Source: Methanosarcina acetivorans C2A
GTDB taxonomy: Archaea; Halobacteriota; Methanosarcinia; Methanosarcinales; Methanosarcinaceae
Direction of reading: 5' to 3'
DNA length: 64,000 nt
Assembly: GCF_000007345.1 (NCBI RefSeq)
Contig: NC_003552.1
Location: 3,596,001-3,660,000, forward strand
In this document: in pieces, positions 29,673-36,436 of the stretch
Layout: the number at the start of each line of letters is the position of its first letter
Numbering within the stretch: position 1 is the first letter of the stretch
The notes under the pieces: model-generated
What the model was told of the DNA's origin: nothing
The model's database searches: none
What the model saw: the letters and a program-made list of their open reading frames with translations, nothing else
Translations under genes and position numbers: made by a program

Positions 29673-30353
29673 GTGTCTATGAAAGAAATAAGGGAGCAGG
29701 AAAAAGAGCAGAGACGCAATTATATTCTTGACGCGGCGGAAAAATTGTTTTTCTCCAGGGGTTATGATGGCGTTTCAATGGACGATATCGCAAACGAGGT
29801 AGAATTCAACAAAGCGACACTTTATCTTTATTTTAAGAATAAAGAGTCGCTTTTTTTCACTGTTGTCCTGCGCGGAAAAAGAATCCTGAATTCCATGGTT
29901 GAAGAAGGTATTAAAAATTGCAAAACAAGCATCGAGGTCCTGGACACGATTGGAAAAGAGTACTTTTAGTTCATAGGTGAGTACCCCGATTATAGTCGGA
30001 TGTACTCATATTTCCATTCGGGAAGGTTCAACCTGGAAGATAGCGAAGATATGGATGAGGTTGCAAAGGAGATTCTCAAGCTGGACCATGATATAATCGC
30101 AATAACGCGCAACGCGATAAAGTCGGGAATCGATGAAGGCTTGATCCGGAGCGATGTCGACCCTGTCGAAATGACCGTTTTCTTGAACCTGATTGCCAAA
30201 GGTCTTACAGAAATGAGTCCCAGATTTAAGAAAGTACTGGAGAAACGGGGAATTACTCAACATCAGTTTTTCGCAGACGCCGCTGATTTCATGCACCACA
30301 TGCTCATGAACCCGGACAGGTGGATAAAAACTAAAAGTGATGTGTCTGATTGA
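29673..30353 (+). CDS. TetR-family regulator with in-frame UAG
   Basis: The N-terminus is a standard TetR helix-turn-helix: RRNYILDAAEKLFFSRGYDGVSMDDIANEVEFNKATLYLYFKNKE-type signature. At 29967-29969 the frame meets UAG right after KEYF. It continues without a break for 128 codons with typical ligand-domain sequence (FIGEYPDYSRMYSYF... to DRWIKTKSDVSD) and TGA at 30353. Family members usually have a charged residue at the UAG position. Options are pyrrolysine readthrough, a truncated 100-residue DNA-binding form, or recent inactivation. GTG at 29673 lies 5 nt after GGTGAT. The operator array is immediately upstream and two methyltransferases downstream. Confidence 0.85.
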
Positions 30354-30392: not shown

Positions 30393-31313
30393 ATGCAAGA
30401 ACCAACAAACTTCACAGCTTCAGGTGAAGTAACCATGAAAAGAAAAGGACCCAGCAATATGGCTGAGAGAATCGCGCTTATCAGAGCAGGTGAATCGAGA
30501 AAGCCTGAAGATGAACGCATCTGTTACGATCCCTATGCCATCCGCTTCATCAGCCCGGAAATACTGGAATTTGCGGCCCGTAATCCGGAAAAGTACAAAG
30601 CAGAAATTGAACGGCTGGAGCAGCTCTTTCCCGGATTGGCGAACTCGGCAGTTGCCAGGGTCAGGTATTTCGACGACGTTGTAAAAGCGTCTGCTGATGA
30701 TGGTCTCGAGCAGCTGGTAATCCTGGGTGCAGGTTATGACACCCGTGCCTATCGGATTGAGGGGCTGAAAAACATCAAAGTTTTCGAAGTGGACCACCCT
30801 GACACCCAGCGTGTGAAAATAGAGAAGGTCAGGGAGGTCTTCGGTTCTCTCCCAGGTCACGTCACATACGTTCCTCTCGATCTGGAGTTTGATAAACTCG
30901 GCCAGCAGCTAACAGAGTGCGGATATGACAGATCCCGAAAGACCCTTTTTGTCATGGAAGGGCTGGTAATGTACCTCCGGCCCGAGACAATGGATGAGAT
31001 ATTGTCTTTTATCGCGCATAATTCTGGTAAAGGAAGTGCCGTTATTTTCGACTACGGAGTTTTCAGATCTTCAGATGCCGGAGAGACTGCACCGGAAGCG
31101 GGCAAAAACATCCGAAATTTCACTAAAAAACGGGGGGAACCCCTTAAATTCCTAATCAGAGACGGAGAAGTCGAAACATTCCTTTCCGAAAGGGGATTTT
31201 CCAGAATCCAGAACATGACCAGCAAGGACTATAAAAAGGCATATTTTTGCGGAAAAAACGAGGGCCGGGTAGTTAGCAGCTTGATCTCGTTTGCCTATGC
31301 GCTGGTCAGGTAA
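30393..31313 (+). CDS. LCMT-type (TIGR00027-like) SAM methyltransferase, copy 1
   Basis: Typical leucine-carboxyl-methyltransferase-like protein: RVRYFDDVV, then motif I VILGAGYDTRAYRIEGL, acidic motif II VFEVDHPDTQRVK, and LFVMEGLVMYL. About 306 residues, normal for the family. Members O-methylate small-molecule or peptide carboxylates; the substrate here is unknown. It begins 40 bp after tetR's stop and so probably shares the operator-controlled transcript. It is about 60% similar by eye to the next gene, indicating tandem duplication. Confidence 0.88.
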   Translation: MQEPTNFTASGEVTMKRKGPSNMAERIALIRAGESRKPEDERICYDPYAIRFISPEILEFAARNPEKYKAEIERLEQLFPGLANSAVARVRYFDDVVKASADDGLEQLVILGAGYDTRAYRIEGLKNIKVFEVDHPDTQRVKIEKVREVFGSLPGHVTYVPLDLEFDKLGQQLTECGYDRSRKTLFVMEGLVMYLRPETMDEILSFIAHNSGKGSAVIFDYGVFRSSDAGETAPEAGKNIRNFTKKRGEPLKFLIRDGEVETFLSERGFSRIQNMTSKDYKKAYFCGKNEGRVVSSLISFAYALVR

Positions 31314-31383
31314 ATCAAAAACAACCGAATCAAAAACAACCTTAAATCTTTCTGAAATTTATGTGAGAAGAGGTGAGCATGCA

Positions 31384-32304
31384 ATGCAAGAACCGGAAAT
31401 TTCCACGACTTCAAATGAAACGCACACAAAGAGAAAAGGACCCAGTAAAATGGCTGAGGGAATTACCCTCCACCGAGTCGATGAATCAAATAAGTCCGAA
31501 GAAGAACGGATATTTTATGATCCGTATGCCGTTCATTTTGTTAACCCTGCGATTCTGGAATATGCAGCAAAATATCCCGAACAGGCAAAAGCAGCAGTGG
31601 AGCAGATGGAGCGTCTTTTCCCGGGTCTCGGCAATTCTATTCGGGACAGAGTCAGATACTTTGACGATTTTGTCAGGGCAGCAGTCGATGAAGGGCTTCG
31701 TCAACTGGTCGTCCTTGGCGCGGGATATGATACCAGGGCGTACAGGATTGAAGGGCTGAAAGGGAAAGTCAGGGTTTTCGAAGTGGACCACCCGGATACT
31801 CAGAGTGTAAAAATCGAAAAGGTCGAAGAAATCTTTGGTTCCCTGCCGGACCACGTTATCTATGTGCCGGTTGATTTCGAAACCGACAACTTTGGCGAAA
31901 AGCTTGCTGCGCAGGGATACGACAGGTCGCTGAAAACTCTTTTCCTTCTGGAAGGGCTCATTATGTATATCTCTCCCGAGGCCATTGATGAGACGTTATC
32001 CTTTATCGCAAAAAATTCGGAGAAGGGCAGTGCTATCCTGTTTGATTACTACCCTGAGTCCGTTGTTGACGGGACATGCGAACTGGAAGCGGGGAAAAAC
32101 ATCCGGAATTATACGAAACAACAGGGAGAACCCCTTCAGTTCGGGATCAGGGAAGGAATGGTCGAGGCTTTTCTTGGTGAAAGGGGATTTTCCGGAGTTC
32201 AGAACGTGACTGCTGAGGAGTACAGGAAAATGTACTTCCATGGGATAAATAAAGATAGGGAAGTATGCGATCTTTTATTCTTTGCTCACGCAGTGATCGA
32301 ATAA
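31384..32304 (+). CDS. LCMT-type SAM methyltransferase, copy 2
   Basis: Paralogue of the preceding gene with the same layout: RVRYFDDFV, VVLGAGYDTRAYRIEGL, VFEVDHPDTQSVK, LFLLEGLIMYI. ATG at 31384 is 6 nt after GAGGTGA and its first residues (MQEPE) match copy 1 (MQEPT), so the longer frame from 31291 is rejected. A direct repeat AATCAAAAACAACC occurs twice in the 70-bp gap. Retention of motif I in both copies suggests both are active. Confidence 0.88.
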   Translation: MQEPEISTTSNETHTKRKGPSKMAEGITLHRVDESNKSEEERIFYDPYAVHFVNPAILEYAAKYPEQAKAAVEQMERLFPGLGNSIRDRVRYFDDFVRAAVDEGLRQLVVLGAGYDTRAYRIEGLKGKVRVFEVDHPDTQSVKIEKVEEIFGSLPDHVIYVPVDFETDNFGEKLAAQGYDRSLKTLFLLEGLIMYISPEAIDETLSFIAKNSEKGSAILFDYYPESVVDGTCELEAGKNIRNYTKQQGEPLQFGIREGMVEAFLGERGFSGVQNVTAEEYRKMYFHGINKDREVCDLLFFAHAVIE

Positions 32305-33728: not shown

Positions 33729-34406
33729 TCAGCAAATATTCAGCATCGTATTTCCGCCCCGTTGGAACTCGTATGCCACCTTTACTTCCTCCACATCCCG
33801 CTTTTCCTCCCTTAAGAAATCAATAACAGTATCAACATATGTCGATCGGCTGGCGTTTACGTCCAGCAGCGGAAATATTCGGACTTCATTCGAAACCCTG
33901 CACAACTCCTCAAGCGCCCTCAGGTGAAACTCCAGCGACAGGTTATCCGTATAGAGGAACAGGAAATGCGAGCAAAGTGCCAGATCGAATTCTTTGTTAC
34001 CAAAAGGCAGTGAAGGCAGTTCACCCGGTATGTATCTCTTCTGCATCATTCCTTTTGGGAAATCTTTCAGAAATTTTTCCATAGCCGACATCCTGACCCT
34101 TCCGAGCTCCTCAACTGAGCCGATTTCTTGCCAGACGAACTGATCCCGATTTTTCCTTGTCTGGTCAATTATATCGTCATAGGTTTCACTGATTTTCTGC
34201 ATGATCCGGTCAGCGCTGAAATAATAGATCGGGTCGACAGATATGATATTTCCACCTCGCTCTGTAAGCTCTACGTTGAAGCTTGCCGGACCGTCCCCAC
34301 AGCCCAGAATCTTTCGCTTTAGGTCGGCAGGGGTCAGGCTAAACATCCTCACATACTCGTCGAAAGACCTGCCCCAGGGCTTGATGCCATGATATTCAAT
34401 TGTCAT
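33729..34406 (-). CDS. SAM-dependent methyltransferase-like protein
   Basis: The 225-residue protein starts MTIEYHGIKPWGRSFDEY, then KILGCGDGPASFNVEL (motif I), ISVDPIYYF, and LPFGNKEFDLALCSHFLFLY (motif IV-like) and LRALEELCRVSNEVRIFPLL. The substrate is unknown. A longer frame to 34514 crosses the promoter and the IS110 gene's end and is rejected. TTTATATAT (34441-34449) lies 35-43 nt upstream and direct GTACAC repeats sit between it and the start, so the transcript is nearly leaderless. Confidence 0.78.
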   Translation of the reverse strand: MTIEYHGIKPWGRSFDEYVRMFSLTPADLKRKILGCGDGPASFNVELTERGGNIISVDPIYYFSADRIMQKISETYDDIIDQTRKNRDQFVWQEIGSVEELGRVRMSAMEKFLKDFPKGMMQKRYIPGELPSLPFGNKEFDLALCSHFLFLYTDNLSLEFHLRALEELCRVSNEVRIFPLLDVNASRSTYVDTVIDFLREEKRDVEEVKVAYEFQRGGNTMLNIC

Positions 34407-34482
34407 AATGTGTACCATATAGCACATAAGTGTACAACAAATATATAAATTATTAGCATGAAAGTATATGAGGAGATCTTCC

Positions 34483-35727
34483 TCACGTACTCTCTTTTTC
34501 GTCATTTCTCGCAATTACGTATATTTCACTCATTATTTTGATCCTTTCATCAACTGAGAACATCTCAGTCTCAACTATCTTTCTCTTTTGAATTTCTCCC
34601 TTTTTATATCCAGTTTCATCTTCATACATCTCCTCTTTTGTAATCAAATGCCAGATAATTGTTGCAATTTTTCTTGCTAGGGCGATAATCGCCTTTGAAT
34701 GTCCAATCGACTTCTTTTTTCTGTTGAAAAATTCTTTTAACCTGCTATTTTTCGTTCTTGCTGCTGCCTGGGCAATCTGTGTTAGGATCCACCTTGCTTC
34801 CTTAGATCCTCTCTTAGTGATTCTACCGTTATGGTATTTATCCGCTGATTGGTACACCTTCGGAACTAGGCCAAGCCATGAAGCAAGCTTATCTCCTGAA
34901 GAAAAATCTTTGAAATCGCCTATTTCAGCAGTAAGAGTTGCTGCTCCAAGTTCTCCTATTCCTGGAACAGACATTAAAATTTCCATTTCTTGCTTATGAT
35001 TTTTATAAGCATAATTGAAAATTTCTTTTTCCAAAATTTTGATTTCATTGTCAAGATGCTTTATGATATCCAAACAGATTTGAAGCCTGAATGCAGTATC
35101 TTGAGAGATTTCTCTGTCCAGAATTTCCCTTATCTGCTTACTTTTCTTACGAACATTTGGAGAAAGGTTTGCAATAATCTGGTCAACGCTTTTACCTGAA
35201 CAAATTCCTGATAGAATTGCTCTACCACTCTTACCAAAAATATCTGTTAGCACATTCTTCAGACTAAACATTTCAGGTGCGAGTATGGCGTGAGCTTCAT
35301 TTTTTATATCTGTTCTTTTTTGTACAAGGTTATGGCGAAGCCGAATACATGAACGAAATGTTCTATGGTTTTTTGGGAAAACTCTTGATGGTTGAACCAT
35401 ATTATTCAATGCAAGTTGTGCGATGAATTCGGAATCGATCTTATCTGTTTTTTTGTGTGTAAACGCCTTCATATCTCGGGCATTTCCAACTATAACAGGT
35501 AGATGTTTTATCAACGCATCATAAATCGGAACCCAAAAGTCACTCGTTGATTCACAGGCAACAACGTCACAGTTCTCTGAGATAACCCAGTTTTTAAAAG
35601 CTAATATTTCGTCAGGGGTTCTATAGAAATGTTGTTGCTGTTTTTCACCAGATCTACTGAGGATTGTAGCAATGAAAAAGAGTTTGTGAATGTCTAAACC
35701 ACAAGCTTTGTTTATAACCTCAACCAA
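34483..35727 (-). CDS. IS110-family transposase
   Basis: N-terminal RuvC-like DEDD domain (GLDIHKLFFIATI, CESTSDFW, DKIDSEFIAQLA) and C-terminal Tnp_IS116/IS110 domain (LMSVPGIGELGAATLTAEIGD, LASWLGLVPKV, SKEARWILTQIA). At 414 residues it is full length. TTG at 35727 follows GGTGAT. IS110 recombinases use an RNA from the element's noncoding end to choose donor and target; see the adjacent candidate. The element sits next to the methyltransferase promoter. Exact ends were not determined. Confidence 0.92.
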   Translation of the reverse strand: MVEVINKACGLDIHKLFFIATILSRSGEKQQQHFYRTPDEILAFKNWVISENCDVVACESTSDFWVPIYDALIKHLPVIVGNARDMKAFTHKKTDKIDSEFIAQLALNNMVQPSRVFPKNHRTFRSCIRLRHNLVQKRTDIKNEAHAILAPEMFSLKNVLTDIFGKSGRAILSGICSGKSVDQIIANLSPNVRKKSKQIREILDREISQDTAFRLQICLDIIKHLDNEIKILEKEIFNYAYKNHKQEMEILMSVPGIGELGAATLTAEIGDFKDFSSGDKLASWLGLVPKVYQSADKYHNGRITKRGSKEARWILTQIAQAAARTKNSRLKEFFNRKKKSIGHSKAIIALARKIATIIWHLITKEEMYEDETGYKKGEIQKRKIVETEMFSVDERIKIMSEIYVIARNDEKEST

Positions 35728-35880
35728 TTTAGATCACCAAATTAGATCACCAAATTAATTTGGGCAGTAGAATTGCCTCAAAGGCCAATTTAGCATCCGT
35801 GATCAAAGTCACATTTGAGCCTTCGATGGCAATTCACTGGTTAGTTTTATCACGGCTTCGAAGAACCAAAATAAGTACAA
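35728..35880 (-). ncRNA. Candidate bridge/seeker RNA of the IS110 element
   Basis: The noncoding stretch 5' of the transposase is the usual place of the IS110 guide RNA. It contains a 7-bp stem CCGTGAT (35797-35803)/ATCACGG (35849-35855) enclosing a small GCC-TTCGAT-GGC hairpin, and outside it GGCA/TGCC (35763-35777). Two tandem copies of AATTTGGTGATCT precede the start codon. Position is known from the family; the RNA itself is inference. Confidence 0.4.
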
Positions 35881-36436
35881 CCTTACTGCCAAAGAGAATG
35901 ATGAGGTTGATCGATAAAAAGGGAAGGAAAAAAAACTACTTTCATTTCTTTGTGCATGTTATTCGAAGAATTTCATATGCGTTTTATTTAATTAGTGAAA
36001 GGAAATATGACATGAAGAAAGTACCTTACTGCAAAATACAGATAACCTGTTCATTTGTACATTGAGAATTAATGATCAAACAAATACCTAAATTTCCAAA
36101 CTCTGGTACGAAAAAGACCTGTTAGTTCACCTGTTAGTTCTTTAATCGTTTTTTCACTTAATGGTTTTTTTTGCTTTATGGGATAACTTCTTAAAAATAG
36201 GGATTGAAAAATGCATTAAAAAATGCTTATGATTGGTTTGACAGGGCCATTACTACCTGAAATTGAAAACTGCCTGTTCATGACCGCTCGAACCGAATCA
36301 TTTTCCTTTATTTTTTAATGTGTAATGAATATCGGGAGTATGGAATAGGAATGTATGTAACCGGGTTTTAAACAGGCCGGAAAATAATGCACTGAAAAAT
36401 TATACCATTGCACCCATTCCGTACACCTTTTTCCGG
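35881..36436. other. Intergenic right of IS110
   Basis: Contains the outer end of the IS somewhere before about 35960 and AT-rich sequence with repeated CTGTTAGTTC (36118-36144). No gene accepted. Confidence 0.4.

What the first reader, a model, noticed from the sequence alone, without database searches (positions are those of the whole stretch)
35728..35880. Candidate IS110 bridge RNA
The noncoding 5' end of the IS110 gene has a 7-bp closing stem, inner hairpins and a 13-bp direct repeat. IS110 recombinases are guided by such RNAs, and archaeal examples are few.
Basis: partly seen in the sequence, partly recalled or inferred. Interest (0 to 1): 0.55.

Follow-up and report, generated by a model that had tools for sequence, protein, structure and literature searches.

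The report
Archaeal jumping gene's guide RNA
The stretch in front of this methane-making archaeon's jumping gene appears to encode a small guide RNA whose loops match the element's own end and the places it jumps to, and related genomes carry many tiny gene-less copies of the element that probably hitch a ride on that guide.

Summary
The finding is real. The IS (34453-35985, minus strand) has four near-identical copies in this genome. A 137-nt noncoding stretch (35759-35895) before the transposase gene folds at z -4.75, with compensatory changes in its closing stem. Two arms behave as target and donor loops. Over 39 insertions with 13 guide types, the true site averages rank 0.088 among local AA sites with its own guide, against 0.327 with swapped and 0.298 with shuffled guides. 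A donor-loop base agrees with the right end in 21 of 23 elements.

It differs from IS621: the target-guide order is that of IS1111 seekRNAs (top-strand match first), yet the RNA lies upstream of the gene as in IS110, and the core is AA. The 13-bp repeat lies outside the RNA; the suggested target 34460-34480 lies inside the element.

Elsewhere, 65-92-bp elements made of both IS ends fused, without gene or RNA, give up to 144 model matches per genome. They look like miniature elements moved in trans; their sites fit resident guides clearly in two of five genomes tested, weakly in one, not in two. All functional steps are inferred from sequence.

The parts
34453..35985 (-). Whole insertion sequence, from RE with core (34453) to LE with core (35985)
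   Evidence: Ends shared by 4 near-identical copies with unrelated flanks
34483..35727 (-). DEDD/Transposase_20 recombinase gene, 414 aa, TTG start; candidate catalytic residues D12, E59, D95, D98, S294
   Evidence: Pfam and NCBIfam IS110 matches; S294 set against the IS621 catalytic serine by eye in the alignment; numbering from motif positions
35759..35895 (-). Bridge RNA, 137 nt (boundaries inferred from conservation and fold)
   Evidence: Fold z -4.75; covariation; model R2 matches in 32 of 111 family genomes
35884..35890 (-). 5' arm of the closing stem, pairs with 35763-35769
35763..35769 (-). 3' arm of the closing stem
35839..35882 (-). Target-binding arm
35868..35878 (-). Target guide, 5' side: antisense of right flank plus core (pairs with top strand)
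35844..35853 (-). Target guide, 3' side: sense of left flank (5 nt), core AA, then AAC equal to the LE start
35770..35835 (-). Donor-binding arm
35788..35797 (-). Donor guide, 3' side: GATGCTAAAT, matches RE end ATGCTAA
   Evidence: varying base agrees with RE in 21 of 23 elements
35810..35817 (-). Proposed donor guide, 5' side: CAAATGTG, partly complementary to LE (AUGUG against CATAT/CACAT)
   Evidence: inspection only; weak
35937..35985 (-). Left end: the ~50 nt also found in the mini-elements
34453..34466 (-). Right end TACTTTCATGCT plus core AA
34453..34454 (-). Core AA at the right junction
   Evidence: exact core position inferred, A-run
35984..35985 (-). Core AA at the left junction
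   Evidence: exact core position inferred, A-run
35971..35979 (-). Subterminal repeat CATATGAAA, inverted partner TTTCATG at 34457-34463
   Evidence: inspection

Best explanation
The 5' noncoding region of this Methanosarcina IS encodes a bridge (seeker) RNA of about 137 nt. [quoted passage not shown] Its second arm reads the element's own ends: the 3' side matches the right end ATGCNAA. The DEDD recombinase uses this RNA to join the circular element's RE-LE junction to AT-rich chromosomal sites. The same RNP probably moves fused-end mini-elements in trans. Shown here by sequence: the structure, the guide-target match, the donor-base agreement, the guide order. Inferred: transcription, RNP formation, catalysis, the circular form, the donor 5' guide, mobility in trans.
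For: Own-guide mean rank 0.088 over 39 insertions (mean of the 13 guide-type means 0.145), swapped guides 0.327 (lowest of 200 draws 0.236), shuffled 0.298 (lowest of 200 draws 0.159). Donor base against RE base 21 of 23; shuffled mean 10.8, highest of 20,000 shuffles 19. Structure: 16 both-sided cells against 7.4 shuffled (0 of 500 as high), covariation score 0.114 against 0.087 (0 of 500). Fold z -4.75. R2 matches in 32 of 111 family genomes and 6 of 14 genera. Reading the same guides with IS621-like polarity gives 0.374. The IS621 copy printed shows the published opposite order.
Against: Target matches are partial (commonly 2-4 of 5 left and 5-7 of 9 right), and one guide type (GTACC, L035) fails outright (rank 0.962). 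The AA register and the one-base shift were chosen after seeing the first family's sites, though controls had the same freedom. Guides and sites are both A-rich; swapped guides also score below 0.5. The donor base disagrees in 2 of 23 elements (L033, L105_989), and rows are related by descent (L112 and L113 share one bRNA). Pairs with both-sided change (4) are not far above shuffles (2.6; 33 of 500), further pair types (14 against 13.3; 192 of 500) not at all, and the outermost closing pair is broken in 6 of 19. The structure was derived from the alignment it was tested on. No Rfam bridge-RNA match. No expression data.
Confidence: 0.88

Rival explanations
1. The structured region is only a 5' leader of the transposase mRNA (translation or transcription control), with no guide role.
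For: It lies directly upstream of the TTG start; stable hairpins there could control translation.
Against: Loop sequences differ between families and track the insertion flanks. The donor-loop base tracks the RE base.
Confidence: 0.07
2. The element is a standard IS621-like IS110 with 5'-side left guide and 3'-side right guide.
For: RNA in a long LE and a short RE, as in the IS110 group.
Against: Guides read in that polarity give mean rank 0.374 against 0.088; the core is AA, not CT.
Confidence: 0.04
3. The 65-92-bp dispersed repeats are not mobile elements of this IS but an older REP-like repeat, either captured by the IS as its ends or used by it as a target.
For: Repeats occur in a genome without any IS protein or bRNA match (G012: 10 model matches). 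Sites fit resident guides no better than shuffled guides in G029 (177 of 200 shuffled sets as good) and G003 (42 of 200), and only weakly in G000 (19 of 200). An IS1111 inserted in a MITE is on record (passage of PMC10969869).
Against: They carry both IS ends in register, including the varying GCNAA end. The four IS copies share a private variant (ACATGC) in the left end that none of the 15 mini-elements aligned has, with unrelated flanks: the ends travel with the IS. Sites fit resident guides in G008 and G009 (0 of 200 each). Four head-to-tail tandems, all in G029, run from one element's RE-AA into the next LE.
Confidence: 0.25

Closest known systems
IS621 bridge RNA (IS110 group; Durrant 2024 PMC11208160, one section and passages; Hiraizumi 2024 PMC11208158, passages)
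   Same: DEDD plus serine recombinase, RNA upstream of the gene in a long LE, separate target and donor loops with split guides and shared core.
   Different: Guide order reversed (5' side reads right target top strand), AA core instead of CT, a closing stem around both arms, shorter RNA (137 nt inferred; IS621 numbering runs to 177), distant protein (phmmer E 4e-9).
IS1111-group seekRNA (ISEc11, ISPa11, ISKpn4; Siddiquee 2024 PMC11187229, abstract and passages)
   Same: Top-strand match lies 5' of the bottom-strand match; subterminal inverted repeats may be present.
   Different: There the noncoding region is usually downstream of the gene; here it is upstream. The protein tree does not put this IS with IS5075/IS4321 (weak backbone).
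Prokaryotic MITEs (review PMC10969869, passages only)
   Same: Short, multicopy, gene-less, carrying the ends of an autonomous IS, with a hairpin.
   Different: Here the presumed mobiliser is an RNA-guided recombinase, so site choice would come from a guide RNA supplied in trans.

Membership tests
IS110 family (DEDD recombinases) | DEDD_Tnp_IS110 and Transposase_20 domains | tested here: met
   Pfam 64.7 and 97.4 bits, above cut-offs; NF033542 271.3 bits, cut-off 140
IS110 family (DEDD recombinases) | Catalytic D-E-D-D and serine | tested here: inconclusive
   Motifs at D12, E59, D95, D98, S294; serine region aligned to IS621 at i-E 6.4e-8, but the RuvC-part alignment has only 2.1 bits
IS110 group | Long LE holding the RNA upstream of the gene, short RE | tested here: met
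   LE 258 nt, RE about 30 nt
IS110 group | Guide order: bottom-strand (left) match 5', top-strand (right) match 3' | tested here: not met
   Rank 0.374 in this polarity against 0.088 in the opposite one
IS110 group | CT core (IS621 and relatives) | tested here: not met
   AA at both junctions in the rows printed
IS1111 group | Guide order: top-strand match 5' of bottom-strand match | tested here: met
   order as described in passages of PMC11187229
IS1111 group | Noncoding region downstream of the gene | tested here: not met
   RNA upstream of the gene in the intact elements printed
IS1111 group | Subterminal inverted repeats of 7-17 bp | tested here: inconclusive
   CATATGAAA/TTTCATG, 7 bp with a 2-nt insert in the window copy
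IS1111 group | Recombinase clusters with IS1111 proteins | tested here: inconclusive
   Methanosarcinaceae clade outside the starred clade that holds IS5075/IS4321; backbone support 61/77
Bridge RNA | Target loop matches insertion flanks | tested here: met
Bridge RNA | Donor loop matches both element ends | tested here: inconclusive
   RE side 21 of 23; LE side by inspection only, partial
Bridge RNA | RNA bound by the recombinase and required for recombination | not testable with these tools
   needs biochemistry
MITE of this IS | IS ends, no gene, multicopy | tested here: met
   150 distinct elements extracted, 65-92 bp; 1 to 144 model matches, IS left ends included, in 29 of 30 genus genomes, none in one
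MITE of this IS | Moved in trans by the IS recombinase | tested here: inconclusive
   Guide match at sites in G008 and G009, weak in G000, none in G003 and G029

The most novel reading that the evidence does not exclude
Methanosarcinaceae carry a third architecture of RNA-guided recombinase: IS110 gene layout with IS1111 guide order and an AA core. Its RNP mobilises, in trans, whole populations of 65-92-bp RNA-less mini-elements (up to 144 model matches per genome), plus ~230-bp elements that keep only the target-loop half of the RNA and a ~500-bp element that keeps the RNA but not the gene. This would be a natural system in which guide RNA, enzyme and mobile DNA are separate players.
Probability: 0.55. 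Interest if true: 0.78.

Novelty: new variant of a known kind. Interest (0 to 1): 0.62.

Why it matters
In the elements that Siddiquee et al. studied (four IS1111, one IS110), guide order went together with RNA position; this lineage separates them, so it could show what sets the order. Naturally separate donors (mini-elements), guides and enzyme would be a natural test of trans mobilisation by bridge RNAs, bear on specificity and minimal donor size, and explain an abundant repeat in Methanosarcina genomes.

Tried and rejected
Rejected: the 13-bp direct repeat as part of the RNA (outside it, lineage-specific). Rejected: 34460-34480 as target (inside the RE). Rejected: IS621-like guide polarity. 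Rfam gave no bridge-RNA match (in one search only a sub-threshold SNORD47 at E 2.8). A sigma-70 promoter and terminator scan of 35700-36000 found none and says little for an archaeon. The first hairpin count on mini-elements placed the 5' arm by a first rather than best match and was replaced. The empty-site search is weak: the flank on the methyltransferase side matches up to or just past the junction in ten other genomes, but the far flank only in the window's own genome apart from a ~98-nt match in G010; the seven loci I aligned (L378-L384) lack the IS, and the few bases matched past the junction could be chance. The protein tree has too weak a backbone to assign a group. Mini-element sites do not fit resident guides in G029 and G003, and the window genome's own main guide ranks only fourth of 13. 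Rows dropped before counts: for the 39 insertions, six loci that were second copies of places already held (L115-L120), L034 and L047 (ends not found), and loci whose protein match did not begin near the start; from alignment A5 (19 rows), L033 with its ~90-nt insert, duplicates and places without recognisable ends (not tallied). Mini-element flanks were tested for five genomes only; G023, with the most matches, gave one extracted element. Literature, seen as listings unless said otherwise: 'bridge RNA'+'non-autonomous'+'IS110' 0 papers; two of 'bridge RNA','IS110','target-binding loop' 24; 'IS110'+'MITE'+'archaea' 18; 'Methanosarcina acetivorans'+'insertion sequence'+'IS110' 2; 'seekRNA'+'IS1111' 6; 'Methanosarcina'+'miniature inverted-repeat' 2; three of 'IS110','IS1111','MITE','nonautonomous' 4, of which I saw passages of one; 'IS110'+'Methanosarcina'+'transposase'+'repeat' 6; 'bridge RNA'+'archaeal'+'IS110' from 2024 4. 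I make no claim of absence from print beyond these searches; ISfinder, preprints and supplementary files could not be searched, so an earlier prediction of this RNA there is not excluded.

Full report
WHAT IS THERE. The window lies in a 5,751,492-bp single-contig genome; the size is that of Methanosarcina acetivorans C2A (recalled, not looked up). The ORF at 34483-35727 on the minus strand matches DEDD_Tnp_IS110 and Transposase_20 and NCBIfam NF033542, the IS110 family RNA-guided transposase. Four copies at 98-100% protein identity, one diverged broken copy (71-73%) and one end fragment are in the genome. Comparing copies with unrelated flanks gives the ends: in gene orientation the left end starts AAAACGCATATGAAATTC and the right end stops ...ACTTTCATGCTAA, window 34453-35985. 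The left noncoding end is 258 nt and the right about 30 nt.

THE RNA. Relatives from Methanosarcina and other Methanosarcinaceae share a segment ahead of the gene, 135-137 nt long in the 19 aligned. The window copy (35759-35895) folds at -48.2 kcal/mol, z -4.75, 0 of 200 shuffles as good. In the alignment of 19 (A5; L033, with a ~90-nt insert, was left out), 96.6% of cells pair, both-sided changes occur in 16 cells against 7.4 in shuffles (0 of 500 as high), and slid structures pair in 28-44% of cells. The structure was derived from this same alignment, which favours it on cells paired. The clearest compensation is in the closing stem: one pair is G-C in 9, A-U in 8, G-U in 1, unpaired in 1. 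The outermost pair has 4 both-sided changes but is broken in 6 of 19; the count of pairs with both-sided change (4 against 2.6; 33 of 500) and of further pair types (14 against 13.3; 192 of 500) is unremarkable. A covariance model (R2) matches 32 of 111 genomes of the family, 6 of 14 genera.

TARGET LOOP. Inside the first arm, the 11 nt of the 5' side read as the antisense of the right insertion flank plus core; the 10 nt of the 3' side read as five nt of the left flank, the core AA, and AAC, which equals the start of the left end. I scored each true site against all other AA sites within 300 nt on either side, allowing a one-base shift for true and control sites alike. Over 39 insertions with 13 guide types the mean rank is 0.088 (0.5 expected by chance; left side 0.205, right side 0.147). 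Guides swapped between families give 0.327 (lowest of 200 draws 0.236) and shuffled guides 0.298 (lowest of 200 draws 0.159). The mean of the 13 guide-type means is 0.145; one type fails (L035, 0.962). The shift and the register were chosen after looking at the first family, and matches are partial, so site choice is loose or sites have decayed.

DONOR LOOP. The 3' side of the second arm reads GATGCNAA and the right end ATGCNAA. N agrees in 21 of 23 elements, with C, T and A all represented (shuffled mean 10.8, highest of 20,000 shuffles 19); L033 and one element of L105 disagree (bases read by hand). The rows are related and not independent. The 5' side (AUGUG) is partly complementary to the left end (CACAT/CATAT) by inspection only; I count it as unproven.

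ORDER OF GUIDES. Durrant et al. (PMC11208160; section 6 in full and passages) put the bottom-strand match on the 5' side of each IS621 loop. The abstract and passages of Siddiquee et al. (PMC11187229) state that the top-strand match comes first in IS1111 and second in IS110 type elements, and that the noncoding region is usually downstream in IS1111 and upstream in IS110 type elements. Here the top-strand match comes first but the RNA is upstream. Reading the guides the IS621 way gives mean rank 0.374. The IS621 copy printed shows the published order by eye (ATCGGGCCT in the RNA, ATCAGGCCT in the left flank). The recombinase tree of 16 proteins keeps the five Methanosarcinaceae proteins apart from the clade that holds IS5075 and IS4321, but its backbone is weak (61/77), so I do not assign a group.

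MINI-ELEMENTS. The first ~50 nt of the left end match many short places in the genome. These are not lone ends: each of the 14 loci inspected (L007-L020) held a left end running within 66-77 bp into a right end (15 elements). A model of them (R1) has 64 matches at E 0.01 or better in this genome, five of which are left ends of IS copies, and matches in 29 of 30 genus genomes, up to 144 (G023) and 124 (G029), IS left ends included. I extracted 150 distinct elements of 65-92 bp, 142 of them from five genomes. Their ATGAAAGT/ACTTTCAT stem is fully paired in 114 of 150, with G-C replaced by A-T at one pair in 17; the model favours this hairpin, so this leans towards pairing. Four head-to-tail tandems, all in G029, run from RE-AA directly into the next LE. 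Site preference against resident guides, best guide per element, compared with 200 shuffled sets: G008 0.110 (0 as good, 22 elements), G009 0.069 (0, 9 elements), G000 0.219 (19, 43 elements), G003 0.298 (42, 15 elements), G029 0.161 (177, 53 elements). With single guides, the resident one ranks first of 13 in G003 and, for one of its two guides, in G009, second in G008 and fourth in G000. So trans mobilisation is likely but not shown; in G029 and G003 the data do not support current guides as the cause.

OTHER NON-AUTONOMOUS FORMS. In G004 two 232-bp units stand head to tail (L352), each with a left end, the target-loop half of the RNA and a right end, the donor arm mostly deleted; L355 and L363 are similar and L351 looks like a degraded one. 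L343 has a complete RNA with a ~90-nt insert in the target arm's apical loop and a right end 129 nt further on, too close for a gene.

EMPTY SITE. A search with the joined flanks found the methyltransferase-side flank up to or just past the junction in ten other genomes, but not the far flank, apart from a ~98-nt match in G010; the seven loci aligned (L378-L384) lack the IS there. This fits insertion upstream of that gene but does not fix the junction to the base.

VERDICT. A real bridge RNA by sequence evidence, a new variant in guide order and core, with a large population of probably dependent mini-elements.

Noticed in passing
window 29967-30066 +: Rfam PYLIS_4 (RF02511, pyrrolysine insertion sequence) at 126.9 bits.
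   Followed up: no
window 33729-34453 -: The IS sits a few tens of bases upstream of the likely start of a conserved, methyltransferase-like gene; that flank is found in other Methanosarcina genomes, and the seven loci aligned lack the IS. The gene's name is my reading; Pfam gave no match.
   Followed up: partly
window 30393-31313 and 31291-32304 +: Two adjacent, similar ORFs with methyltransferase-like motifs (recalled, not searched), near the PYLIS match.
   Followed up: no
L352:1601-1969 -: Two tandem 232-bp units carrying only the target-loop half of the bridge RNA between IS ends.
   Followed up: partly
L343:1394-1622 + and L033:2252-2478 +: Bridge RNAs with a ~90-nt insert in the apical loop of the target arm; the L343 element has no room for a transposase gene.
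   Followed up: partly
G023 and G029: 144 and 124 mini-element model matches per genome, while no full-length transposase match of these two genomes is among the rows listed (a capped list).
   Followed up: partly
G012: Ten mini-element matches in a genome with no transposase or bridge-RNA match: relics or an independent repeat.
   Followed up: no
L347, L349, L351, L352, L355, L363, L034, L047: Elements whose left end starts T-AAAC have target-loop 3' sides ending in TAAA(C/T) instead of AAAAC, as a handshake guide would predict; L354 is an exception (inspection).
   Followed up: partly
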